The notes below the pieces were generated by a model. It was not told the origin of the DNA. It saw nothing but the letters and a program-made list of their open reading frames with translations, and did no database searches. Of a stretch of 64,000 bases of DNA, positions 8,888 through 55,171 are shown piece by piece (within the stretch, counting starts at the first letter, position 1; each line of letters opens with the position of its first letter). The stretch is from contig NZ_CP051154.1 in NCBI RefSeq assembly GCF_012317045.1, forward strand, positions 1,178,001 through 1,242,000, read 5' to 3'. A program made the position numbers and the translations under genes. Source of the DNA: Leifsonia sp. PS1209 (GTDB lineage Bacteria; Actinomycetota; Actinomycetes; Actinomycetales; Microbacteriaceae).

Positions 8888-8944
8888 GCGGCGCTGGCGC
8901 GACCCTTTCCGAGGGACTCGTGGGTGCCGCCTTCGTCGAGGCCC
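8875..8944 (+). promoter_or_regulatory. Possible attenuator with alternative RNA stems before argC
   Basis: Three stems can be drawn: A, CCGCC 8875-8879 with GGCGG 8887-8891 (the leader stop codon lies in the loop and 3' arm); B, GGCGGC 8887-8892 with GCCGCC 8926-8931; C, GGGACTCG 8913-8920 with CGAGGCCC 8937-8944 (one mismatch). A and B share an arm, and B and C cannot form together without a pseudoknot. A ribosome stalled on the arginine codons would block A and favour B. Energies were not computed. Confidence 0.35.
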
Positions 8945-8972
8945 CCTGTCGTCCACTCAATAAGGTAGAAGC

Positions 8973-10016
8973 ATGACTTTCTCGGTAGCCGTCGCCGGAG
9001 CATCCGGTTACGCGGGCGGAGAGCTCCTGCGGATCCTCGCCGGTCATCCAGACTTCGAGGTCCGCACGGTCACGGCGCATCAGAACGCCGGGCAGACGCT
9101 CGTCTCGCACCAGCCCCACCTCCGTTCCCTCAGCCACCTGACCCTGGTCGAGTCGACCGTGGAGAACCTCTCCGGTCACGACGTGGTCTTCCTGGCCCTT
9201 CCGCACGGCAAGTCCGGCGAGATCGCCGCGCTGCTGCCGGAGGAGACGCTCGTCGTCGACTGCGGCGCCGACCACCGGCTGGAGAGCCCGGAGTCGTGGG
9301 CCGCGTTCTACGGCGGCGAGTACTTCGGCTCCTGGGCGTACGGTGTGCCCGAGCTGCCCGTCGGCGACGGCAAGCAGCGGGATGCGCTGGTCGGAGCGAA
9401 GCGCATCGCAGCACCGGGATGCAACGCCAGCGCCGTCTCCCTCGCGCTCGCCCCGGGCATCGCCGCCGGGCTGATCGAGGAGGAGGACATCGTCGCCGTC
9501 CTCGCCGTCGGCCCGTCCGGCGCAGGCAAGAGCCTCAAGACGATGTACCTGGCCAGCGAGATCCTGGGCTCGGCCAACCCGTACGCGGTCGGCGGGACCC
9601 ACCGCCACATCCCGGAGATCCAGCAGAACCTCCGCAAGGCGGGGGCCGCCAACCCCACGGTCTCGTTCACCCCGGTGCTCGTTCCGATGTCGCGGGGCAT
9701 CCTGGCCACCTCCACCGCCCGGCTGAAGCCCGGCGTGACGGCCGAGCAGGTGCAGAGCGCATGGGAGTCCGCCTATGCGGGCGAGACGTTCGTGCAGGTG
9801 CTCCCGGCCGGCACCGTGCCGCGCACCGCCGACGTGCTCGGTGCGAACACCGCTCTGATCGCCGTTGCCGTCGACGAGGCGGCGGGCCGCGTCGTCACGG
9901 TCCTCGCTCTCGACAATCTCTACAAGGGGACGGCCGGCGCCGCCATCCAGTCCGCCAATATCGCCCTCGGTCTCGACGAGACCGCCGGCCTGACCGTGAA
10001 CGGAGTGGCACCGTGA
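8973..10016 (+). CDS. argC: N-acetyl-gamma-glutamyl-phosphate reductase
   Basis: 347 residues. The NADPH-dependent enzyme reduces N-acetylglutamyl phosphate to the semialdehyde, step 3 of arginine synthesis. It has a Rossmann motif [10 protein letters not shown] (9-18) and catalytic Cys150 in [13 protein letters not shown]. The ATG at 8973 is preceded by GGTAGAAGC. TAAGGT at 8961-8966 ends 6 bases before the ATG and could be a second, leaderless promoter. It is first of the argCJBDF run; the stop overlaps argJ (GTGA). Confidence 0.96.
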
Positions 10017-11185
10017 GCGTCACAGCAGCATCCGGATTCGCCGCGGCGGGGGTCGCAGCCGGCCTCAAGGCCAGCGGCAAGCGCGACCTCGCGATCGTGC
10101 AGAACCTCGGCCCGCTCAGCGCGGCGGCCACGGTGTTCACGACCAACAGGTGTCAGGCCAACCCGGTCATCTGGAGCAGGCAGGTCATCGCGGACGGCGT
10201 GGTCTCCGCCATCGTCCTCAACTCGGGCGGAGCCAACTGCTACACCGGTGCACAGGGCTTCCAGACCACCCATGCCACCGCGGAGGCGGTCGGCGAACGG
10301 CTCGGCGTCTCCGCCGGAGACGTGCTCGTCTGCTCGACCGGCCTGATCGGCGACCAGCTCGACCTCGGCAAGCTCACGGCGGGCGTCACGGACGCCGCGG
10401 CAGCCCTCGCCGAGGGAACGGGCCTCGGCGCGGATGCCGGACTCGCCGCCGCCGAGGCGATCATGACGACGGACACCAAGCCCAAACAGGCGGAGCACCG
10501 CTCCCCGGCGGGCTGGACGGTCGGGGGTATGGCCAAGGGAGCGGGGATGCTCGCGCCCGGCCTCGCGACCATGCTCGTCGTCATCACCACCGACGCCGTC
10601 CTCGACTCCGCCCGGCTGGATGCGGCGCTCCGGGCCGCGACCAGGGTCACCTTCGACAGGCTCGACTCCGACGGCTGCATGTCCACCAACGACACCGTCG
10701 CCCTGCTCGGCTCCGGCGCGAGCGGCGTCGCAGCAGACGAGGCGGAGTTCGCCGCGGCGCTCACCGCGGTGTGCCGCGATCTCGCCGAGCAGCTGCAGGC
10801 CGACGCGGAGGGCGCATCCCACGACATCGCCATCGAGGTCGTCAACGCGGCGAGCGAGGACGACGCCGTGACCGTCGGCCGCGCCGTCTCCCGCAGCAAC
10901 CTGTTCAAGGCGGCCATCTTCGGCAACGATCCCAACTGGGGCAGGGTGCTCGCAGCGGTCGGCACGACCGATGCGGTGTTCGATCCGTACGGCATCGACG
11001 TCGCGATCAATGGCATCCAGATCTGTACGGCGGGGGAGCCGGACCAGCCGCGCGAGCTGGTCGACCTGACGCCGCGCGCCGTGCACATCCTGATCGATCT
11101 GCATGCCGGGGGCGAGACGGCGACCATCCTGACCAACGATCTCACGCACGACTACGTGCACGAGAACAGTGCGTACGCGAGCTGA
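10013..11185 (+). CDS. argJ: Bifunctional glutamate N-acetyltransferase / amino-acid acetyltransferase
   Basis: 390 residues. ArgJ recycles the acetyl group from N-acetylornithine to glutamate and, when bifunctional, also uses acetyl-CoA. The precursor is self-cleaved before the nucleophilic threonine; here GLATML places cleavage at Ala185-Thr186, after the conserved KGAGMLAPG. The GTG at 10013 overlaps the argC TGA by three bases, so there is no room for an independent promoter. Whether it is mono- or bifunctional cannot be told from sequence. Confidence 0.95.
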
Positions 11186-11186
11186 G

Positions 11187-12122
11187 ATGACAGACGACAG
11201 CACGCTCGACACGAGAGCAGAGACCGACGCGGCGGAGGCGGAGGAGCGCAGGAGCGCCTCGGCCAAGGCCGAGACGCTGATCGAGTCGCTTCCCTGGCTG
11301 AAGCGGTTCCACGACCAGATCATCGTGGTCAAGTTCGGTGGGAACGCGATGGTCAGCGAGGAGCTGCAGCAGGCGTTCGCCGAGGACATGGTCTACTTGC
11401 GCTACGCGGGCATCCGGCCGGTCGTGGTGCACGGAGGCGGCCCGCAGATCTCCGCGATGCTGGACAGGCTCGGCATCGAGTCCGAGTTCCGCGGCGGGTA
11501 CCGGGTGACGACGCCGGAGGCGATGGATGTGGTGCGCATGGTCCTCACCGGCCAGATCAACCGCGACCTCGTCAGCAACATCAACAAGCACGGTCCGCTC
11601 GCCGCCGGTATCTCCGGTGAGGACGCCGGGCTGTTCCAGGGGCGCAAGCGCGGAACCGTCGTCGACGGCGTCGAGGTGGACCTCGGGCTGGTCGGCGACG
11701 TGATCGGTGTGAACCCGGAGGCCGTGCACGCGCAGCTGGACGCCGGGCGCATCCCGGTCGTGTCCTCGATCGCGCCGGACATCGACGACCCAGGGCACTC
11801 GCTCAACGTCAACGCGGATGCGGCGGCCGCGGCCCTCGCCGTCGCTCTCGGGGCGGCGAAGCTCGTCATCCTGACCGACGTCGCCGGGCTGTACAGCGAC
11901 TGGCCGAACCGCGACTCGCTGCTGTCCAAGATCGACGCAGGCGAGCTGCGCGAACTGCTGCCGACGCTCGAGTCCGGCATGATCCCGAAGATGTCCGCCT
12001 GCCTCGACGCCGTCGACGGCGGCGTCGCGAAGGCCGCGATCATCGACGGGCGCATCCCGCACTCGATCCTGCTCGAAGTCTTCACCCAATCGGGGATCGG
12101 AACGGAGGTGGTGCCATCGTGA
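11187..12122 (+). CDS. argB: Acetylglutamate kinase
   Basis: 311 residues of the amino-acid kinase fold, with VVKFGGNAM (N-terminal phosphate site) and [10 protein letters not shown]. It phosphorylates N-acetylglutamate and is normally the arginine-feedback point of the pathway. The N-terminus includes a helix ([18 protein letters not shown]) of the kind found in arginine-inhibitable hexameric enzymes. ATG 11187 lies one base after the argJ stop; a GTG at 11169 is in frame but would overlap argJ. Confidence 0.95.
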
Positions 12123-17119: not shown

Positions 17120-17779
17120 ATGACCTCGGGCGGGCAGGGGGCGCTCGCGGACGGGCTCTTCCTGCCCGACCGCGAGTTCTTCCTGGCGTCGTCGCTCGAC
17201 GTCGCCCCTCGGCTCCTCGGTGGCGTGCTGCGGCACGAGACGCCGGAGGGCGCGGTCTCCCTGCGCATCACCGAGGTCGAGGCGTACATCGGCGACGGCC
17301 TCGACCCGGGATCGCACGCCTTCCGCGGCCGCACCAAGCGCAACGCCGTCATGTACGGCGAGCCAGGGCACCTCTACGCGTACTTCACCTACGGGATGCA
17401 CGTCTGCGCCAACGTCGTCTGCTCGCCGCCTGGAGAGGCCTCGGCTGTGCTGCTGCGCGGCGCAGAGGTGGTGGAGGGCGAGGAGCTGGCGACCCTGCGC
17501 CGCTCCGGCCCGACGGCGCGCGTCGTCCCGCGCCGCGACCTGGGACGCGGGCCTGCGCGGCTCGTCGTCGCCGCCGGGATCACCCTCGCCGACGACGGCG
17601 CGGACCTGTACGCGCCGCCGTTCTCGCTGCTGTTGCCGCGCATCCCGCTGCCGCACGAGACGGGGCCGCGCACCGGGGTGTCAGGGGCAGGCGGGGGAGC
17701 GGCGTTCCCGTGGCGGTACTGGCTGCCGGGGGAACCGTCGGTGTCCGCGTACAAGCGGCACCCGAAGTCGCACGACTAG
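17120..17779 (+). CDS. mpg: DNA-3-methyladenine glycosylase (AAG/MPG family)
   Basis: 219 residues. Family motifs are RLLGGVLRHE, ITEVEAYIGDGLDPGSHAFRGRTKRNAVMYG (containing the catalytic glutamate of EAYI) and YAYFTYGMHVCANVV. It excises alkylated purines such as 3-methyladenine to begin base excision repair. It lies 13 bases after the membrane peptide gene and is probably the last gene of the argGH transcript. Its stop overlaps the end of the convergent membrane gene by four bases. Confidence 0.92.
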   Translation: MTSGGQGALADGLFLPDREFFLASSLDVAPRLLGGVLRHETPEGAVSLRITEVEAYIGDGLDPGSHAFRGRTKRNAVMYGEPGHLYAYFTYGMHVCANVVCSPPGEASAVLLRGAEVVEGEELATLRRSGPTARVVPRRDLGRGPARLVVAAGITLADDGADLYAPPFSLLLPRIPLPHETGPRTGVSGAGGGAAFPWRYWLPGEPSVSAYKRHPKSHD

Positions 17780-18372
17780 CCGGCGGCGATCCGGAACAGC
17801 GCGGCGCACACGCATGCCCAGACCAGGCTGGTGAGCGTGCCGATGATGAACCGCTCGCGCGCTTCGGCCGCGTCCAGTTCGGTGAAGCGGCCGACGCCCT
17901 TGATGGCGACGAGCACGGCGATGGCCTCCGGGAAGCCGGCCATGATCGCGCCGGTCGTCGCGAAGCGTTCGAGGAAGCCGATCGTCGTTCCGCCGCGCAG
18001 CACCTCGCGGGTGCCGTCCTGACCGTCGACGCGGTCGGGGACGACGATGCCGCCGTGCACTCCGTCGACGGTGGACCGGGATGCGAGGGCCAGCACCACC
18101 TGCGACGCCGGTCCGCCTCCCGCAACACTGAGCGCGATGGCCACGATGCCGATGAGCACCTGGAAGAGCAGGGGAGCGTGCTGGCCGGGCAGGATCACGA
18201 GCACCACCGCCAGGGCGAGCAGCCCGGAGGCGACGTAGACCAGCGGACGCCGCGGCGACCGCAGCGTGGCGATCATGCAGCAGAGCGCTGCGATGGCGAG
18301 CACCAGCGCGAACGACCAGGCGGCGATCGGGCCGGCAGCGGCGAGGATCGCGGGGTATGGGATGGTCGTCAC
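17776..18372 (-). CDS. Multi-pass membrane protein, partner of the SatD-like gene
   Basis: 198 residues with about four hydrophobic segments: residues 8-34 (AAAGPIAAWSFALVLAIAALC), about 45-62, about 70-95 and a C-terminal pair around 140-155 and 180-196. A soluble stretch around residues 100-128 separates them. The GTG start overlaps the SatD-like stop (GTGA), so the two form one operon. No family is recognised beyond this pairing; similar membrane partners accompany SatD-like proteins. Function unknown. Confidence 0.75.
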   Translation of the reverse strand: MTTIPYPAILAAAGPIAAWSFALVLAIAALCCMIATLRSPRRPLVYVASGLLALAVVLVILPGQHAPLLFQVLIGIVAIALSVAGGGPASQVVLALASRSTVDGVHGGIVVPDRVDGQDGTREVLRGGTTIGFLERFATTGAIMAGFPEAIAVLVAIKGVGRFTELDAAEARERFIIGTLTSLVWACVCAALFRIAAG

Positions 18373-46289: not shown

Positions 46290-46316
46290 GTGGCACGGGC
46301 ACCCGCCGGGACACGC

Positions 46317-46355
46317 TAGTATGGACAAGTTGCTTTGGGGCTCCACCCTCAAAGC
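46317..46355 (+). promoter_or_regulatory. tRNA-Pro promoter -10 and leader hairpin
   Basis: TAGTAT at 46317-46322 fits a -10. The leader then folds as GCTTTG (46332-46337) with CAAAGC (46350-46355), just before the mature tRNA, probably a processing element. Confidence 0.5.
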
Positions 46356-46360
46356 GACTT

Positions 46361-46434
<74 letters not shown>

Positions 46435-46478
46435 CGTAACGGGCCGTTTGTGTAACTGTTTACGAAACCGGCCAAAAG

Positions 46479-46512
46479 AGAATCGCCCCGGAGAAATCTC
46501 CGGGGCGATTCT
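46479..46512. terminator. Terminator hairpin after tRNA-Pro
   Basis: AGAATCGCCCCGGAGA (46479-46494) pairs perfectly with TCTCCGGGGCGATTCT (46497-46512), 16 bp with a tiny loop. It lies 44 bases beyond the tRNA. From here to 46671 no gene or other structure is seen. Confidence 0.8.
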
Positions 46513-46671
46513 GGTCCTAATAGCGAAGATGCCGATTGAGTGCGTCAGTTTGGTGCGATCTTCGTAGTTGTCAGTATCGGTTCTCGCCAGCTGTGGTTTT
46601 TCGGGCAGGCTGGCGCCGTCTCTAAGCAGGGCTGTGGCTCTCTCGAGCAGTGTCAGTAGGTGGCCGGCAGG

Positions 46672-47577
46672 CTACTCCTGGAGCGGAGGCCCGCCCGTAC
46701 CGTCACCATCGTTAGGTCGCGTCCTGTCGGGCTTAGACGGCTTAACGCCCGGCGGATACGTTCCGGTGTATGGGTTGTAGTGCTCGCGGTCACGTCGTCT
46801 GACCTTGGGATCCTTCGGCTGGCTCCGAGCAGCTTCGTGTGCAGCGTCGGCGATGAATGAGCTGATCTTACGCATGTTGAACGCCGCAACGATGAGCGTC
46901 ATCATTACCTGAGCCGCGGCGAATCCGCGTACGGGGCGACGGGTGGAGTCGTGAAGGTTGTGGCCGCCGCCGCTATTGATCTGCGAGTTGAGCGACTCGA
47001 TCGCATTGCGTGCGTGCGTGCGTGTGGAAGTCTTCCCACTCCTGTGTCCCGTAGGGGAACGCCTGTGCCTCGCGACGGAGATCGGCCGGGTCGAAGGTGG
47101 CACTGTGCTTCGAGCAGATTGTGTCGCGGACGGCGGCAGGAATCAGGTCTTCCTCGTCGATCGCCGGTCGGCTCTTCTTCGCCGCCTTTTTGACGAGTTC
47201 TCGCAGGGGGCAGGTGACGGTGGGCGCGTTCCCCAACGCCGGGCAGGCCAGCATGACCTTGCCGTTCGGTTTCGTCTCCTTCTTGTGGAGCTCGTAGGCA
47301 GCCAATTCCTCCTTGCGCTCGCGGAACGTCGGCTTGTCGATGTCGCCGTCGTGATACTGCTGAGTCGCCTACAGGTTGCTCTCGGGAGTGCTGGGACAGC
47401 ATGCGCGTCCCTCCAGATAGCGGGCACCGTGTGCACCACCGGACGGCTTCAACCGATCCACGCGGTAGTCGGTTGATGGTGTGAAGCCGAGCATGAAGGC
47501 CGGCTCGTGCAGACGCTCAGCGAGGCTATTCGCCCAGTACTGCTTGTCAGCGTCAGCAACGCCCGGAGCACGCCCCA
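46672..47577 (-). pseudogene. Degenerate transposase (truncated, nonsense and frameshift)
   Basis: Three blocks of one protein remain: residues like DADKQYWANSLAERLHEPAF to PSTPESNL, ending at an in-frame TAG (47369-47371); then ATQQYHDGDIDKPTFRERKEE through YGTQEWEDFHTHAR in the same frame; then, after a frameshift near 47008-47023, NAIESLNSQINSGGG to PGVKPSKP and the stop at 46672. The last block has the glutamate helix and C-terminal helical part of a DDE transposase. The N-terminus is missing beyond about 47577. Without the TAG and with one ACGC unit fewer, the frame would be open. No terminal inverted repeats were identified. Confidence 0.8.
47008..47023. repeat. Four-unit GCGT tandem repeat causing the frameshift
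   Basis: GCGT is repeated four times (ACGC on the coding strand) inside the transposase remnant. Removing one unit restores HTHARNAIESLN. Replication slippage is the likely cause of the frameshift. Confidence 0.75.
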
Positions 47578-47579
47578 GG

Positions 47580-48005
47580 CGTAAGAGGAACCTGCGTCGC
47601 GAGGCGGCGGCCGATTTGCTCAGCTCGATCCCGGAGCTCCGGTCACGGCTGTACCGCCTCGAAACCGGTAAGTGCGACAAGAAGGCGTGGCGACGCGTGA
47701 TGGCGGAGGCGTACGAGTCCGTGCGCCGAGTCAGACACCGCACTCCACGCGAGTGGCGTCACCTCCGACTCTCACTATTCGACGCGATTGGGAATGGTGC
47801 CGGGTCGGTAGTTTGGATCGACGTCAGCCCCTCAGGCGCTAATGGAGCGCTGACTTACGACCACCGGTGGACAGTGAGCGCGGCTGAGTACCTCGGCTAT
47901 GTGCAAGACGCCGTGCAGCGTTGGGGCGACATATACAAGCGCGGCACGGCCGACAAGGTACGACTGCTCAGCTGCGACGATTGGCTACGTCGGTCAGGCT
48001 GCTGA
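47580..48005 (+). pseudogene. Orphan ORF fragment of unknown function
   Basis: 142 codons open to a TGA at 48003-48005, abutting the transposase remnant. The nearest ATG start is 47481, inside that remnant; ATG 47700 would give 101 residues. The sequence has a coherent look (basic helical part RKRNLRREAAADLL, then FDAIGNGAGSVVWIDVSPSG and VSAAEYLGYVQDAVQRWGDIY) but no family is recognised. It probably lost its 5' end to the transposon. It ends 18 bp from the convergent end of the 816-residue gene. Confidence 0.35.
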
Positions 48006-48023: not shown

Positions 48024-50474
48024 TCAATCGCTCGCTTCCTCTCGCCAATGTGCCACCGTCCGGAGCACGGGGTCTGCTGGGGCGTCGTTCATCTCTCCCA
48101 CAGACCTCACCCATTGTTTCCTGCGATCAGTCGACGACGCTGCGTCAGGCGCTTTGAAGGGATCGGCGCCCATCGCCCACATGACGTGGCGGCTGCTCAG
48201 ATGATCAGCAGTTAGAAGGAATCTGGGTCGATCTGGAAGGCGGCGTTCGAGGCTGCTTGGCAGGTCGTTACTCGCCACGCTGTCGAGCACGCACATCACA
48301 TCGAATGGGGATCCGAGGTGCTCCGATGTTGCATCCAGCTGGTCAGCGGCGCTGCGATTGAAGGCTGAACCGCGACGCTTTGCCTCGACGGGAACGAGGC
48401 TTCCATCTGCAAAAAGAAGTACGACGTCTGCTTCAGCCGCGACACGCCCTTCCAGAATGAACTCGACGCCGGGGTGAGCGCCAACAAGTCCGCGATCGTG
48501 AAACAAATCGACGAGCCACCTCAATGCAAGCACGTGTCCTAGAGAGTCGTTTTCGAGGCATCGCCGCAGCACCTCACCAAGGCGATACTTGAACACTAGG
48601 TTCTCCGGCCCGAACGGTTGAGGCAGAGTGCGAGCGCATCCTGAGCAAACGAACGGTGGAGAAAGCTCTGCTATCGGAACCCAAGTTGTCGCTCGGCAAG
48701 AGGGGCAATGAAGTTCCACGCCCTTGACTAGCAACCTGTGATTAGTTGCCCAATCTACCCAGACCTTTGCGGCGCGCAGATCGCCGAAACAGGCTTTGAA
48801 CCGACCAAATGGGACCTGGCGCGTGTCGTCGGCCCCCGCGACCACGGGCGCATCTCGCTGCCCCGACACCGCGATGGCATCGGTTTCATCCGGAGAAAGC
48901 CCGGCATCACGTAGCTTCCTTTCGGCGGCAGCCCACCGTTGTTTCCACCAAGACATACCGCTCAACTCGGCCATTTCATACAGGAGGCCGAGCAGTCCAG
49001 GATCCGACAGGTAGTAGCAATCGGCTACGGACCCGATGGCTCTGACAAGGCTCATGGCAGTTAGGCCCGGCTGCGACTCGCGGACGTCCAGTCCCAGTGT
49101 GAGCGCGGCTGCAGAGAGGGACGTCCAGCCGGAAGGCCACCGCACTTCCGCAGTTCCCCGACGTTGCAACGATGACACCTGAACCTGAGCGCCGCCAGAC
49201 TGAAAGTCTGCGTAGAAGCGTCCCCTTAGAGGACCCACAGCGGGAATGGGCCGGTCTCTCAGCCGAACCGAAAGGCGAAGGCTTGGCACCTTCCCTGTTG
49301 CCCGAAACAAGTCGCGGTCGTCGGCCGAAAGGCCGGCTATGCGTGCCGCCCCCTCGGCCCAGTTCTGCACACTCTCGCTGTACCGAGACGGTGCTTGTCC
49401 GAAACGGAGGAGGTCCGCCGGCTCTGCAACATGCGTATTAGCGATGCCAACACTGAGCGCGGTAAGGCGCTCGACCGACACAGATGAGCTTGTGAGATAC
49501 GTTTCGCCGCCGCTGAAGCCAAAGTAGGCGGTGGCACCGGGAACACGAAGTTCACGAATTGCTGCACCGTTCACTGCACTAACCGGCATGCCGATGGGCA
49601 TGACGTGGGAGTCGCCCCAGGCGGCTCTCAGATTCCAGAGAAGAGCTAGGTCGACAAGCGACTCCGGCTCCATAACGACGACAATGTTTGGGCCTGCGGC
49701 AGTTGCCGTACGCCACGGGTCGGGGATGACCGGCTCGTCGGCGAAGTAGCCGGTATTCGGGCTGATGCCTGCGGCCAAGAATAAGGTGCTGAACTGACGC
49801 GGGGTTATGGCATTCTGATTTTGCAGCCGACGCACGAGATCCTGGATGCTACCTTCGGCCTTCACCCGATTGAGTGGGAAAACTGAAGAGACGGCAAGCG
49901 GCTCCGCTCCAATTCGGTCGGTCAAGTCCGTATCAAGCTCGTCGGGCATCCAGCCCAGGGTGCCCAAGTAAGCCGTGCGCCAGGGATCGTCTGGATCCAA
50001 TTCGACTACTTCGATTGGTCGCGCATTTGTCAGATCCTCCTTTGCAGCTATGACCAGCACTGGGTAGTCCCAAGGATTGGCGCTCGAGAGGTACGGGACA
50101 CCCGGGATGGGCGTGGCCCAATCTTGCCCCTCATGCGGTAGATAACCGTCCACCTCGCCCTCAACCAGCCGATTGGCGATGTAGCGCGGAGCCGCTCCGT
50201 CGGCGAGCGGGAGGAGCGGATTTCCTGCGCCGCCCCACGCCTGACAAAGCCTTGCGACCGCCGCCTGAGCCTGCGTCAGCGTCGAGACGCATCTCGCCAC
50301 GACCGACGGCCTCAACCCGACCTGCACCTCATGGGGGCCTGACGCCAATTCAGAGTCGAGAAGGTAATCCAAACGTCCCCCTATATACGCGGAACTCTCT
50401 GCCGGCACTGTTGAGTCGATCGATACTCGTAATGGCGATTCTGCCCTGCCGAATAGCCGTTCCTCGCGCGCCAC
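48024..50474 (-). CDS. Zinc-ribbon and PD-(D/E)xK-like protein, third gene of the defence module
   Basis: 816 residues of no family I recognise. Visible features: a large N-terminal region (1-560) with a VVVMEPESLVDLALLWNLRAAWGD segment (265-288); a four-cysteine zinc ribbon, C590-x2-C593 and C610-x2-C613; then a C-terminal nuclease-like motif with EAD (681-683) and VEAKR (E697, K699), the ExD...ExK pattern of PD-(D/E)xK enzymes. The GTG start lies 51 bases after the helicase stop, same strand, so it is likely co-transcribed. Composition is AT-richer than the host genes. A role beside the HamA/HamB-like pair in anti-phage defence is an inference from context. Confidence 0.7.
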   Translation of the reverse strand: MAREERLFGRAESPLRVSIDSTVPAESSAYIGGRLDYLLDSELASGPHEVQVGLRPSVVARCVSTLTQAQAAVARLCQAWGGAGNPLLPLADGAAPRYIANRLVEGEVDGYLPHEGQDWATPIPGVPYLSSANPWDYPVLVIAAKEDLTNARPIEVVELDPDDPWRTAYLGTLGWMPDELDTDLTDRIGAEPLAVSSVFPLNRVKAEGSIQDLVRRLQNQNAITPRQFSTLFLAAGISPNTGYFADEPVIPDPWRTATAAGPNIVVVMEPESLVDLALLWNLRAAWGDSHVMPIGMPVSAVNGAAIRELRVPGATAYFGFSGGETYLTSSSVSVERLTALSVGIANTHVAEPADLLRFGQAPSRYSESVQNWAEGAARIAGLSADDRDLFRATGKVPSLRLSVRLRDRPIPAVGPLRGRFYADFQSGGAQVQVSSLQRRGTAEVRWPSGWTSLSAAALTLGLDVRESQPGLTAMSLVRAIGSVADCYYLSDPGLLGLLYEMAELSGMSWWKQRWAAAERKLRDAGLSPDETDAIAVSGQRDAPVVAGADDTRQVPFGRFKACFGDLRAAKVWVDWATNHRLLVKGVELHCPSCRATTWVPIAELSPPFVCSGCARTLPQPFGPENLVFKYRLGEVLRRCLENDSLGHVLALRWLVDLFHDRGLVGAHPGVEFILEGRVAAEADVVLLFADGSLVPVEAKRRGSAFNRSAADQLDATSEHLGSPFDVMCVLDSVASNDLPSSLERRLPDRPRFLLTADHLSSRHVMWAMGADPFKAPDAASSTDRRKQWVRSVGEMNDAPADPVLRTVAHWREEASD

Positions 50475-50525
50475 GCGAGGCCAGTGGCCGCACGGCGGGT
50501 TGTGGCAAGAGCTGCACCGGCGGGG

Positions 50526-53500
50526 TCAAGATTCCAGGCTCACCCTCAGTCGTTGCTTTGTGGCGGTCAAATCCAGCTCGACCCTGATTGCAAAGCCGCT
50601 GTCGATAATGCTTGCGACGTCTGCATGGTCTTCTGTGGCGACGTATGCGAATAGCTTGCCCGCAGCGTAGACACCAAACGGCCTCGGATCCGGTTCATCT
50701 TTCGCCTCGTGGATTTGCAAGTTGCTGAAACCCGTAGGCCATTCGAACGCGGCTAGGGCGATGTATGTTACGCCAGATTCCAAGAGTTCGGTCAGAAGAT
50801 TGCGCTTCCTCCTTCGGGTGAACTCCAGGAGGTCAATCAAATCCGAGGAGTTGGCGTCGAACTTGATTCTCCAGTCGCTGATCGTCATCAGCGCCAAACG
50901 GCTTCGAAGTGCAGCTTCGTCAGAATCTCGTGTTTCCGGTAGCCGCACCGCGATCGTGTTTGCAAGGCGACGTGACCTCAGCCCTGCGCGCAGAAGGACG
51001 AGAGCGGCCTCGTTTGAGACCCCGAATCGGATGAATGATCCCAACTCTGGGCAGATGAAGTTTTCCGAGCCCAGTTCCTCGAGGCGATTATTGATCAGTT
51101 CGACGAGCGCGCCCATTAGCCAAGCTAAGTAGTGCTCGAAATGTTGCGATACAGCACCGACGACCTGCTCAGAGCGAAACTCGTCGTCTTCCACGTCCTT
51201 CAAGAACCTGCTGGCGATTGATGGCAGGCTCGCCCCATCGATCCAGGCGCCTAACATTTCGACCGGGTCAACAGCGATGTCGCGAGGTGAGCGCGCGGTC
51301 GGCTTGAACTTCCACGGGGGAGCTTCCTGCAAGCTATACAGATCCCGAATGACGTCGGAGAGGTAGTCAACGGCTCTCCCAGGGCTTCCAACGAGAACCG
51401 TATCTTGGGAGAGTTCGCGGGCCACGGACTCCGCGATTTGGTCGAGGATCCGAGCCGACCCGATTGATGTTCCGGGTTGTGCCCATCTAAGCCGTGCCGC
51501 TGCCGGCGCGGTGATGTAGCGCCGCTGAACCGCTCGAGCTGAGTTTTGAAGCAACTGTAATTGAGCGGGGTCGGCCTGATTCCCGGCTAGGGTCTCCGCC
51601 ACAATATTCGAAATGTCCAAAGAGGCCGGATCCAGAGCACGCCGCTCGACGACGCTTAGCGTCGTCCAAATGAAGCTGATGAAGTCTGCGGCAACATCTT
51701 GTTCACTGAAGATGGCGTCGGCGTCGGCGCTGAGTCTCGTCTCCGCGGCCGCGAGCGCGGCCAGAGACGAGTTGACTAGGAGAGAAGATCGCACCTCTAG
51801 CCGATCGGCCGTAGGGTTCAACTCGTCGAAGTCGTCATCCGACGGTGATTGAGTTCGTATCAGGACGATCCAGCCTTCGGTTTCAATGCCGGCACGACCC
51901 GCTCTACCGATGGCGTTCACCAGTCGCGCGCCAGCGAAGCGGCTTTCCTCCGGCTGCCCAGGGTATGGCGCGTCGTAGATGACGACCGTTCGGACGGGAA
52001 GGTTGACTCCGTCTGTGAGCGTTGAGGTGCAAGCTAGATATGAGAGTCTCTCGTCGCGTACTGCTGATTCGAGCGCCTCCAGAACTTCCACGGGCAGGCC
52101 GGCGTGATGAAAGCCAACACCACTTCGCAAACAAGCGACTAGCGGATGCGCGTCCCCCAGTTCCTGGCGAACGAACTCTACAAGCCCATCGAGGCCATCC
52201 TGGGGGCCGTTCAGCCGCGCGAGTTCACGTGCCAAACGTTGCGCATCCGCCTTCGTCGATGTCACGACTAGGACCGAGCCAGCATGACCCAACGCCTCAA
52301 TCATTTCCGCCGCGATGACGTACTGCTTCGTCGAAGTGGCGTCAGTGCTGAACGACGCAGCGGCAGATGATAGCTCGCGGGCTTTGCGCACGAGCCGCCA
52401 TCCGGTATCGCCTTGAGTCACCAAGCGTTCCACACGTCCGTTTGCCAGGCGCACGCGAATGACACCCTTCAGTTCAGTGACGTGCCTGTATTTCCAGACA
52501 GTCCCTGAGGTCTTTTCTGTCTTCGTGGTAGACCATTCGGCCTCGGTTGAGAAGATCGCGTGGAGTCGTCGAGGACCCCGCCAATCCGAACGGAAAACCA
52601 GGGGAGTCTGGTTTTGGGCAACCCATTGAGCAATCCCCCCGCTATTACCCATCGCGGCCGAGATAAGCATGATCTTGTGTTCGGTGGATTGAGTCAGGAC
52701 GTGCAGGAGCGAGATTGCGGACTCCAGGGTGAACCCGCGGCCCTGCTCTGCAAGGAGTTGGGCCTCATCGAAGATGAACATGCCGAATGTTCGTAGGACC
52801 CCGTCTGCATCGTGCCTTAGAAGGTGCGCGAGCCGCTCGGGCGTCATGACTTCGACATCTCCGAACGGCTCTGGCATAGCGTTGATCAGATCCCACAACG
52901 AGTTGTAATCGGGCTGTTCCGCTTTTACTTCGCGCTGCAGTACCCGCACCCTCTTCGACATGCTGGCGCGAACTTCTCGGGCGAGACTCCGTGTTGGTAC
53001 GACGTAGCAGACACCTCTACCGGTTCTGGCTAGCTGCTCGACGGCGAGTATCTGAGCAACCAGGCTCTTTCCACCACTGGTAGGCACGGCCAGGACCATG
53101 CGCTTTGTCTGCGGGTCATAGGGGCTGGGACTCGACGTGAGTAACTCTCTTTGTGGCTCCCAGAGAGTGAAGACAGGCGACCCGCCCGTGGTGAACGCGC
53201 TCCGTACAATCGACGCAGCCGAGTCAGGCAACACCGAGGGGTTCCAAAGAGAACCTTGTAGCGCTGCCTCACCGAAGGCGAAAAGGTGCGCGGCTACCCA
53301 TCGAGCGTCCAGCGAGTTGGTCTTGACGTCGTCCGATGCTGCGAGGCGCAACAGGTTCATGCCGCGTTCGTAACGTTCAGCATTGCCGCGTGCGAAGTAG
53401 TAAAGAAGATCCTCGGCCCCGAGAATCAAGAACTGTAGGCTGCCCAGCGAGGTAAGGCTGAGGTCATCCAAGTCGGATGCATCAGCGAGGGACTCAAACT

Positions 53501-54005
53501 GGCGTCTCCATGCAGACAGGAGTGGGAACAGTCGTCTGGCGTTGAGGGTGAGAAAGGCCAGTCCTATCCGACTTGGCAGCAGTTCTATGCGGGACATATT
53601 GTCGGCGGCTTGATACAAGTCTTCCCCGAACCGATGGGCGATAGCCGATGCGTTGGGGTCCAACCCGCCACGACGGTAGCCAATCGCTGCGGCGAAGCCC
53701 CAACTCTGGCGCTCGTAAGCTGAAGCGTCGGCAACACTCAACGCAAGGTCGAAAATGTGGGCGCTTACTTGAAAGGCACGGCGCTGCTGAGCCAAGGAGT
53801 AAAGGTTGCGAGCTTCCTCTACTGACGCAACGGCGTGCAGATACCACGCCGTCTCGATGAGCTTTGGCTCGAACGAGGCTCGCCGAAGCACTAGCGCTAT
53901 CTCGACCTGTGCGAGCATCTCCTGGAGTTCTTCGGCTGATGGAAGGCCATCGTGGGCTCGACCCAAAGCCTCGGCGAGAACGGCTGCGTCTAAAGCCCGC
54001 TCCAC
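50526..54005 (-). CDS. Ski2-like DEAD/DEAH helicase, HamB-like
   Basis: 1159 residues. SF2 motifs in order: I, VPTSGGKSL (308-315); Ia-like, VVPTRSLAREV; II, DEAQ (413-416); III, LISAAMG (447-453); V, TSTLTDGVNLPVR (660-672); VI, IGRAGRAG (699-706). The TLTDGVNLP form is typical of Ski2-like enzymes. About 280 residues precede the core and 450 follow it without recognised domains. Hachiman HamB is a helicase of this general type, encoded directly after hamA. Here the GTG start overlaps the HamA-like gene by 16 bases, which implies coupled expression. Alternatives are helicases of other defence systems. Confidence 0.8.
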   Translation of the reverse strand: MERALDAAVLAEALGRAHDGLPSAEELQEMLAQVEIALVLRRASFEPKLIETAWYLHAVASVEEARNLYSLAQQRRAFQVSAHIFDLALSVADASAYERQSWGFAAAIGYRRGGLDPNASAIAHRFGEDLYQAADNMSRIELLPSRIGLAFLTLNARRLFPLLSAWRRQFESLADASDLDDLSLTSLGSLQFLILGAEDLLYYFARGNAERYERGMNLLRLAASDDVKTNSLDARWVAAHLFAFGEAALQGSLWNPSVLPDSAASIVRSAFTTGGSPVFTLWEPQRELLTSSPSPYDPQTKRMVLAVPTSGGKSLVAQILAVEQLARTGRGVCYVVPTRSLAREVRASMSKRVRVLQREVKAEQPDYNSLWDLINAMPEPFGDVEVMTPERLAHLLRHDADGVLRTFGMFIFDEAQLLAEQGRGFTLESAISLLHVLTQSTEHKIMLISAAMGNSGGIAQWVAQNQTPLVFRSDWRGPRRLHAIFSTEAEWSTTKTEKTSGTVWKYRHVTELKGVIRVRLANGRVERLVTQGDTGWRLVRKARELSSAAASFSTDATSTKQYVIAAEMIEALGHAGSVLVVTSTKADAQRLARELARLNGPQDGLDGLVEFVRQELGDAHPLVACLRSGVGFHHAGLPVEVLEALESAVRDERLSYLACTSTLTDGVNLPVRTVVIYDAPYPGQPEESRFAGARLVNAIGRAGRAGIETEGWIVLIRTQSPSDDDFDELNPTADRLEVRSSLLVNSSLAALAAAETRLSADADAIFSEQDVAADFISFIWTTLSVVERRALDPASLDISNIVAETLAGNQADPAQLQLLQNSARAVQRRYITAPAAARLRWAQPGTSIGSARILDQIAESVARELSQDTVLVGSPGRAVDYLSDVIRDLYSLQEAPPWKFKPTARSPRDIAVDPVEMLGAWIDGASLPSIASRFLKDVEDDEFRSEQVVGAVSQHFEHYLAWLMGALVELINNRLEELGSENFICPELGSFIRFGVSNEAALVLLRAGLRSRRLANTIAVRLPETRDSDEAALRSRLALMTISDWRIKFDANSSDLIDLLEFTRRRKRNLLTELLESGVTYIALAAFEWPTGFSNLQIHEAKDEPDPRPFGVYAAGKLFAYVATEDHADVASIIDSGFAIRVELDLTATKQRLRVSLES

Positions 54006-54832
54006 ACGATCTCCTTCACACGATCGGCGAAACCCGCAAAGTCAGGTAGCGCCACGACCAGTCCTTCGGTCTGAGTCGCTGATGTGAACGCGGGGAACCT
54101 TGTTCGGATGGACCTGAAAGTTCGTCCGTCTCGGGGTGCGTTGTCCTTGGTGGTGCCGACGGCAACTCCGACACCAGCCCTGGCACTTCGATCGAACCAA
54201 AGTTCCACCATCTCGCCGTACAAGTCGAGCAGCTCACCTTCGGCGGTGAGAGTTTCGGGAGCGGCTAACTTGGCCAGGTACTCGTGACCGCGCCCCTCCA
54301 ACTGTGAACTTGCCCGGTTGATTGTCGCCGAAATCCGCGCGGTTGCTGCGTGCTTCTTGATCTCCCAGAGACGGAAGACCAAATCGCCGGCCGAATCTCG
54401 GTAGATGACCAGCCCATCGCCACCGGGTTCGGTTGGGTCGGCCTTAACTGAATGCGCTTTCACCAGTCGGCGACCATCCATGCACGTCTCGCGTTCGCCG
54501 AGTACGCGATTCCAGATCAACTCCGCCACATGTCCCTGAAGGTGGTCGGTATTCGGCGGAGCTCCGGGTAGGCCGAAGGCGATGGAGGCATACGTCTCCA
54601 CGGCCTGTCTGCGCGCAGAAGGGTGTGGTGCGCCACCGTCCCGTCGCGCCCGCCAGCTGTCGAATGCGAGGGTGTTGCCGCACGCCACACGCATCCCGTC
54701 ATCCGCAATCAATTGGGCGGCGACTTCGCGGGCAGGTTCCGCCAGGTTAGCTCCCCCAACGAAGTATGAAACGCGCGATCCAGCTGCGGACTCGGAAAGG
54801 TCGAGCAGTGGCGTTAGAGTTGCCGGCTTCAC
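53990..54832 (-). CDS. HamA-like PD-(D/E)xK nuclease
   Basis: 280 residues. A nuclease core is visible: E104 in HVAELIWNRV, D139 in PGGDGLVIY, and E157-x-K159 in LWEIKKH. Size, motif spacing and position just upstream of a helicase match HamA (DUF1837) of Hachiman, whose nuclease is unleashed when the helicase partner senses damaged or phage DNA. GTG 54832 is chosen because upstream residues look non-coding; GTG 54856 is an in-frame alternative. First gene of the three-gene leftward operon. Assignment is by motif and context, not by alignment. Confidence 0.65.
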   Translation of the reverse strand: MKPATLTPLLDLSESAAGSRVSYFVGGANLAEPAREVAAQLIADDGMRVACGNTLAFDSWRARRDGGAPHPSARRQAVETYASIAFGLPGAPPNTDHLQGHVAELIWNRVLGERETCMDGRRLVKAHSVKADPTEPGGDGLVIYRDSAGDLVFRLWEIKKHAATARISATINRASSQLEGRGHEYLAKLAAPETLTAEGELLDLYGEMVELWFDRSARAGVGVAVGTTKDNAPRDGRTFRSIRTRFPAFTSATQTEGLVVALPDFAGFADRVKEIVWSGL

Positions 54833-54976
54833 ATGAGAAGGTTCGCACAATCGCACCCGATGGCCCGCGCAGCACGCTGACCGCTCGAGATGAAACGCCG
54901 GAGGAAAAAACGGAGCCGACGGAGGAAAGGAAGGGGTTCCATGACTGCGTGGCCCAGCGTGCGCAAGTATCGTAAA

Positions 54977-54990
54977 CAGCCCACGTAACG
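54977..54990. repeat. Possible attR: decayed copy of the tRNA-Pro 3' end
   Basis: CAGCCCACGTAACG differs from the tRNA end and flank CAGCCCGACGTAACG (46427-46441) by one missing G. Same orientation, 8.5 kb apart, at the point where base composition changes. Short for an attachment core, so tentative. Confidence 0.35.
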
Positions 54991-55045
54991 ACAAATGGAG
55001 AGTGGCCGCTCGCGATGCGAGCGGCCACTCTCCATTTGTCGTTAC
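54985..55045. terminator. 61-bp perfect palindrome, likely terminator of the NmrA gene
   Basis: Arms of 29 bp (54985-55013 and 55017-55045) pair perfectly around a GAT loop. The arm core is GGAGAGTGGCCGCTCGC. It lies 127 bp beyond the end of the leftward NmrA gene and at the island edge. It resembles the other long loop-poor terminators of this window. Confidence 0.75.
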
Positions 55046-55171
55046 TCGCTGCTGTCTGTTGGGGTCCCCGCCGCCCGGGGGGAGCGTGTGGGGCACAGCC
55101 CGACGGAGAGCCGTGATCGTCACGACTTCGTCGTTCTGGAGCGCACACCACTCGCCGCGACGGCCGCACCG

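What the first reader, a model, noticed from the sequence alone, without database searches (positions are those of the whole stretch)
48024..54832. Three-gene Hachiman-like defence module on a tRNA-linked island
Seen: a 280-residue protein with E104/D139/E157-x-K159 nuclease spacing, overlapping by 16 bp a 1159-residue Ski2-like helicase, then an 816-residue gene on the same strand. Known: Hachiman consists of HamA (DUF1837 PD-(D/E)xK nuclease) followed by HamB (SF2 helicase). Inference: this is a Hachiman relative in which a third gene has joined the operon. Its setting in AT-rich DNA beside a tRNA supports a defence role.
Basis: partly seen in the sequence, partly recalled or inferred. Interest (0 to 1): 0.8.

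Follow-up and report, generated by a model that had tools for sequence, protein, structure and literature searches.

The report
Divergent Hachiman pair beside orphan nuclease
A two-gene bacterial antivirus system of the Hachiman type, with a nuclease part that standard search profiles miss, sits on a small mobile island next to a tRNA gene, together with an unrelated and probably independent nuclease gene.

The parts
53990..54832 (-). Gene 1: HamA-like PD-(D/E)xK nuclease, 280 aa (E104, D139, E157-x-K159)
50526..54005 (-). Gene 2: HamB-like Ski2-family SF2 helicase, 1159 aa
   Evidence: PADLOC PDC-M23B 1.1e-63, HamB1 8.4e-55; Pfam DEAD and Helicase_C; five helicase motif stretches kept, with conservative changes, in 16/16.
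53990..54005 (-). 16-bp overlap of gene 1 stop and gene 2 start
   Evidence: A start codon (GTG, ATG or TTG) at the same 16-bp overlap in 15/15 other loci.
48024..50372 (-). Gene 3: orphan nuclease, 782 aa from TTG 50372 (open frame extends to 50474): N-terminal part of unresolved kind, CxxC...CxxC zinc ribbon, PD-(D/E)xK domain of Card1/Can2 type
   Evidence: No family match; 43 database proteins including the window's own; fold; C590/C593/C610/C613, E681-x-D683, E697-x-K699 invariant in 31/31 alignment rows, two of which are the window's own protein; start. Residue numbers are those of the 816-aa frame.
46361..46435 (+). tRNA-Pro(GGG), integration site
   Evidence: ARAGORN, Rfam RF00005 at 46361-46434.
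46427..46441 (+). Left copy of the att-like repeat (tRNA 3' end)
   Evidence: Sequences and alignment; comparison with G004.
54977..54990 (+). Right copy of the att-like repeat, one base shorter
   Evidence: Window 54977-55074 aligns (78%) right behind the tRNA in congener G004.
54985..55045 (.). Perfect hairpin (29-bp arms), read as the tRNA's native 3' flank displaced by the island
   Evidence: the corresponding flank, with a similar hairpin by eye, directly follows the tRNA in G004.
46513..47926 (.). 1.4-kb insertion, absent in G021, holding a broken relative of an intact 649-aa frame in G005
   Evidence: The two flanking pieces are contiguous at L027 18154 in G021; homology to G005 over window 46302-47577; 649-aa frame, no NCBIfam match.

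Best explanation
Genes 1 and 2 are a divergent Hachiman-type pair. By analogy with E. coli HamAB, the helicase patrols DNA and holds the nuclease in check; damaged or abnormal DNA during phage attack drives the helicase, which releases the nuclease, and it destroys DNA in the cell. Gene 3 is not a subunit: it is a separate cargo gene of the same tRNA-Pro island. It encodes a self-contained nuclease with a Card1/Can2-type catalytic half and an N-terminal part that probably senses an unknown signal, most likely as a one-gene defence. Shown here: folds, residues, gene order, distribution, mobility. Inferred: the activation mechanism, the defence role, and the independence of gene 3 in the cell.
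Against: No sequence-level match of gene 1 to HamA: PADLOC, Pfam and NCBIfam scans are empty at E<=1, 19 close homologues give no PADLOC match and only chance Pfam matches (E 0.16 or worse), PDB sequence searches are empty at E<=10, while known HamAs do hit PADLOC HamA models; profile-profile comparison with 4 known HamAs is not significant (E 0.29 and 0.19, probability below 1%). A profile of the helicase N-terminus has no PDB match at E<=10. By single-sequence search against the PDB the helicase is slightly closer to Hel308 than to HamB (96.9 and 90.5 bits), and its family profile scores higher against ASCC3/Brr2 chains than against HamB (228 and 173 bits). The helicase's best PADLOC model is PDC-M23B, by its name (as I recall PADLOC's usage) only a candidate system. 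Gene 3 lies on the same strand 153 bp downstream, so co-transcription here is possible. No defence assay was available for any of the three.
Confidence: 0.75

Rival explanations
1. A true three-gene Hachiman variant: gene 3 is a second effector nuclease unleashed by the HamAB-like sensor in this lineage.
For: Same strand, 153-bp gap, both predicted nucleases intact. Hachiman is known to recruit extra nucleases (HamM-protease pairs, PMC12799240, passages read).
Against: 0 of 15 other pair loci have gene 3; 0 of 20 gene-3 genome loci have a pair gene in the DNA fetched; G021 carries the pair with another gene in the slot; gene 1 keeps its active site, whereas virtually all protease-HamA fusions lost it.
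Confidence: 0.1
2. The pair is not Hachiman but a separate family (PADLOC candidate PDC-M23 or similar) that shares an ancestor with HamAB and has the same nuclease-helicase layout but a different trigger.
For: Helicase scores better with PDC-M23B than with HamB; no sequence profile links gene 1 to HamA.
Against: Full-length fold match to HamA far above unrelated PD-(D/E)xK folds; same order and catalytic residues; some close database homologues already bear names with HamA C-terminal domain or DUF1837. A HamA-HamB fusion protein from Nostoc matches HamB and PDC-M23B models alike, so the two model sets overlap.
Confidence: 0.2
3. Gene 3 is a cyclic-nucleotide-activated CARF nuclease working with a remote CRISPR or CBASS system.
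For: C-terminal half is of Card1/Can2/Cdn1 type, proteins activated by cyclic oligoadenylates, VC1899 being an orphan exception (PMC7969007, passages read).
Against: No Cas10 palm and no SMODS cyclase found in the host genome; that the N-terminal part is a CARF domain was not shown; the annotated tables of the three plasmid loci list no CRISPR gene. CRISPR genes were not searched at the 20 genome loci.
Confidence: 0.12

Closest known systems
Hachiman (HamAB), E. coli ECOR31, PDB 8VX9
   Same: HamA fold over nearly the whole of gene 1, D and E-x-K residues, order nuclease-helicase, Ski2-like helicase of about the same length (1159 aa here, 1174 in 8vx9_B)
   Different: Gene 1 is invisible to the HamA profiles tried; helicase better matched by PDC-M23B; the 16-bp overlap is constant in this clade (three known HamA-helicase plasmid pairs overlap by 11, 14 and 4 bp by their annotation)
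AbpAB (8ZUE)
   Different: AbpA carries an extra N-terminal Cap4-like nuclease and an inactive HamA-like site (PMC12278908); here the site is intact and there is no fusion
HamMAB (nuclease-protease Hachiman)
   Same: Hachiman with an added nuclease gene
   Different: HamM is an MBL-fold nuclease upstream, paired with a protease fused to HamA; here the added gene is downstream, PD-(D/E)xK, with no protease fused to gene 1, and is not conserved with the pair
Card1 / Can2 / VC1899 nucleases
   Different: Larger N-terminal part of unresolved kind, zinc-ribbon cysteines, no Cas10 found in the genome, no PF09002 match

Membership tests
Hachiman (HamAB) | Gene 1 matches HamA/DUF1837 sequence profiles | tested here: not met
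   0 matches at E<=1 in PADLOC, Pfam, NCBIfam; positive control: four known HamA sequences hit PADLOC HamA models at 4e-21 to 2e-112. I therefore file the pair as Hachiman-type by fold and layout, not as a HamA1/HamA2 subtype
Hachiman (HamAB) | Gene 1 has the HamA fold | tested here: met
Hachiman (HamAB) | D and E-x-K catalytic residues | tested here: met
   D139, E157, K159 invariant in 20/20 rows and 16/16
Hachiman (HamAB) | Ski2-like SF2 helicase directly downstream | tested here: met
   adjacency in the window and 15/15 other loci
Hachiman (HamAB) | HamB N-terminal alpha-helical (NAH) domain that binds HamA | tested here: inconclusive
   About 280 residues precede the helicase core and have 27 invariant columns in 16 rows, but no PDB match; among the 60 chains shown only HamB's best stretch begins as early as profile position 212; helicase structure not predicted
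Hachiman (HamAB) | Anti-phage activity and activation by damaged DNA | not testable with these tools
   needs bench work
Three-gene Hachiman operon | Third gene conserved with the pair | tested here: not met
   0/15 pair loci, 0/20 gene-3 genome loci
Card1/Can2/VC1899 (DUF1887) nucleases | Catalytic half: fold and E-x-D...E-x-K | tested here: met
   Can2 E276/D278 and VC1899 E291/D293 from PMC7969007
Card1/Can2/VC1899 (DUF1887) nucleases | Sequence match to Card1_endonuc PF09002 | tested here: not met
   own-genome search, none at E<=1 (its control genomes ring weakly in 4 of 14, none over the cut-off); Pfam scan of 31 alignment rows, no such match
Card1/Can2/VC1899 (DUF1887) nucleases | N-terminal CARF domain | tested here: inconclusive
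Type III CRISPR ancillary nuclease | Cas10 in the same genome | tested here: not met
   PF22335 search of own genome, none at E<=0.1; control over cut-off in 5 of 14 genomes

The most novel reading that the evidence does not exclude
Gene 3 founds an undescribed family of stand-alone antiphage nucleases in Actinomycetota: the Card1/Can2 catalytic half, known from CRISPR signalling, placed under a new sensor domain, with no cyclase and no CRISPR, and mobile as a single gene among defence islands.
Probability: 0.35. Interest if true: 0.65.

Novelty: new variant of a known kind. Interest (0 to 1): 0.45.

Why it matters
A clade of HamA-like nucleases with 406 database homologues at E <= 0.001 escapes the profile libraries tried here (all members tested: 20 close rows, and 9 others), so Hachiman-type systems are probably under-counted, at least in Actinomycetota and Deinococcota (a Deinococcus plasmid copy is among those read). 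Gene 3 offers a test of whether CRISPR-type effector nucleases also serve in one-gene defences. The case also shows that a same-strand neighbour on an island need not be an operon partner.

Tried and rejected
Three-gene operon: rejected on conservation. Viral origin: no relatives of gene 1 or gene 3 in IMG/VR by pattern scan or in INPHARED phages by tblastn; the gene-3 model against BFVD gave nothing at E <= 0.001. Two proteins of similar length next to pair helicases (L030, 814 aa; L029, 827 aa) looked like distant gene-3 relatives by size but do not match the gene-3 profile; L030's follows the helicase on the same strand, L029's lies on the opposite strand. A second search with the gene-3 alignment returned 42 proteins, all of them already found. 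Gene-3 neighbours (9 proteins at 8 of the 20 loci, my choice of same-strand near neighbours) scanned with Pfam: TIR, YhcG, DUF4365, integrase, resolvase, Mu-type transposase, methyltransferase, a sub-threshold LysM, and one with none; no recurrent partner. Zinc-ribbon matches to ribosomal eS27 (E 0.55 or worse) judged chance. A sequence link of gene 1 to HamA through diverse relatives was tried and failed. Literature searches on Hachiman genes and on Card1-like or zinc-ribbon nucleases showed in their listings no description of gene 3 or of this HamA clade; I saw titles and abstract starts only, of the held open-access library only.

Limits: the larger genome samples score few candidates per genome (6; 2), so their low counts (gene 1 in 3 of 396, 2 of 396, own genome included in both, and 9 of 401; gene 3 in 11 of 401) are lower bounds. 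Six of the 11 gene-3 matches are partial or weak. Three of 16 plasmid records with gene 1 were read in full; the other 13 only through the feature names. L109 is the same plasmid as L031 and was counted once. Of the 20 gene-3 genome loci several are cut by contig ends (for example L004, L015), four are split over frames (L014, L015, L016, L018), L009 and L019 are short, and L020 matches over 61 residues only. The three gene-3 plasmids were judged from annotation only. In one search one of six helicase motif strings was mistyped and not found; five were compared. G004 is intact at the tRNA junction but unmatched to the window further right (L099 6698-13233).

Full report
What is there. Searches confirm three frames on the minus strand: gene 1 (53990-54832, 280 aa), gene 2 (50526-54005, 1159 aa, 16-bp overlap) and a third frame (48024-50474, 816 aa). 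For the third frame, 15 of 29 other homologues in the alignment begin exactly at its residue 35, the model's first 33 residues have pLDDT < 50, and a TTG at 50372 follows GGGGGA. I take the gene as 48024-50372, 782 aa, 153 bp after the helicase; the database record of the window's own protein starts later still, at residue 59. Near the three lies tRNA-Pro(GGG) at 46361-46435. G+C is 0.59-0.62 in the genes, 0.69-0.70 in the rest of the window tested.

Gene 2. PADLOC gives PDC-M23B (1.1e-63) and then HamB models (8.4e-55). Single-sequence search of the PDB puts Hel308 slightly above HamB, and the family profile scores higher against the two-cassette helicases ASCC3 and Brr2 than against HamB. 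Among the 60 chains shown, only HamB's best stretch begins as far upstream as profile position 212. The N-terminal part alone (284 residues here) matches nothing. Five core motif stretches are kept, with conservative changes such as DEAQ/DEAH/DEVH, in 16 of 16.

The unit of conservation is the pair. I examined every gene-1 hit outside the own genome (13 places, one being a plasmid below) and 3 of 16 plasmid records: 15 distinct loci. All 15 have the helicase directly downstream and none has gene 3 in the 14-20 kb fetched. At all 15 a start codon stands at exactly the same 16-bp overlap. In the 16 plasmid records, 14 list a DEAD/DEAH helicase under the match.

Gene 3 travels alone. The genome collection gave 20 loci; none holds gene 1 or the helicase in the DNA fetched, though some contigs are short and one locus (L020) is a weak partial match. 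Three plasmids carry relatives without the pair as annotated. Among 28 congeners, gene 1 is in 2 and gene 3 in 1, own genome included. Among 401 genomes of the family of G065, 9 match gene 1 and 11 match gene 3, 6 of them partially or weakly; no genome is in both lists. The gene-3 neighbours scanned (9 proteins at 8 loci) include TIR, YhcG, integrase, resolvase and transposase genes, company expected of mobile defence islands.

The island. In congener G021 the pair, 95% identical over window 50528-54948, stands in the same orientation beside that genome's tRNA-Pro(GGG); the shared stretch ends at the helicase stop, and the slot holds a 284-aa gene on the other strand with a sub-threshold DUF4241 match. 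The tRNA and pieces of its 3' flank are shared, but the chromosome beyond is not: the window's left-flank and right-flank genes have their best G021 matches elsewhere in that genome. In congener G004, which shares the window's left flank, the sequences at window 46441 and 54977 are joined, an uninterrupted site; further right G004 differs from the window until 57513. The repeat CAGCCCGACGTAACG at the tRNA end recurs, one base shorter, at 54977-54990. In G012, 89% identical up to the tRNA, the same site carries sce7726 and sce7725 family genes and a RES-domain gene. A 1.4-kb insertion at 46513-47926 holds a broken relative of an intact 649-aa frame in G005. I recognised no integrase in the window's island, from the few frames scanned.

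Mechanism. For HamAB, PMC12278908 (passages) shows a helicase sensor that unleashes a DNase on DNA damage. I infer the same here from fold, residues and order. For gene 3 I infer a self-contained sensor-nuclease. PMC12799240 (passages) shows that Hachiman can recruit extra nucleases, so a working link here cannot be excluded, but nothing in the comparisons favours it.

Verdict. A divergent Hachiman-type pair, hidden from the profile libraries used, plus an independent orphan nuclease. The three-gene module is not supported.

Noticed in passing
L130 (Nostoc sp. UHCC 0926 plasmid pn3) 2348-6577: A natural single-protein HamA-HamB fusion of 1409 aa: HamA model at residues 31-200, HamB at 323-1374.
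   Followed up: partly
L097 (congener G012) 8929-12100: The same tRNA-Pro site carries an sce7726-sce7725 pair and a RES-domain gene: tRNA-Pro looks like a hotspot for variable cargo in this genus.
   Followed up: partly
L027 (congener G021) 17214-18068(-): A 284-aa gene with, by eye, a hydrophobic stretch near its start and a sub-threshold DUF4241 match takes the slot of gene 3.
   Followed up: partly
window 46513-47926; L098 6464-8413(-): Degenerate copy of a 649-aa frame, intact in G005 next to its tRNA-Pro, without an NCBIfam match.
   Followed up: partly
window 47481-48005(+): A 174-aa frame whose last 26 or so codons are kept beside the tRNA in G021; no Pfam or NCBIfam match. Possibly a remnant of the island's original gene.
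   Followed up: no
L005 2778-8229: A gene-3 relative in a Subtercola MAG stands between a TIR-domain gene and a YhcG (DUF1016) nuclease gene.
   Followed up: no
L030 3011-5452(-): Downstream of another HamA-like/helicase pair lies a different large frame on the same strand with, by eye, an E-x-K motif; it does not match the gene-3 profile.
   Followed up: partly
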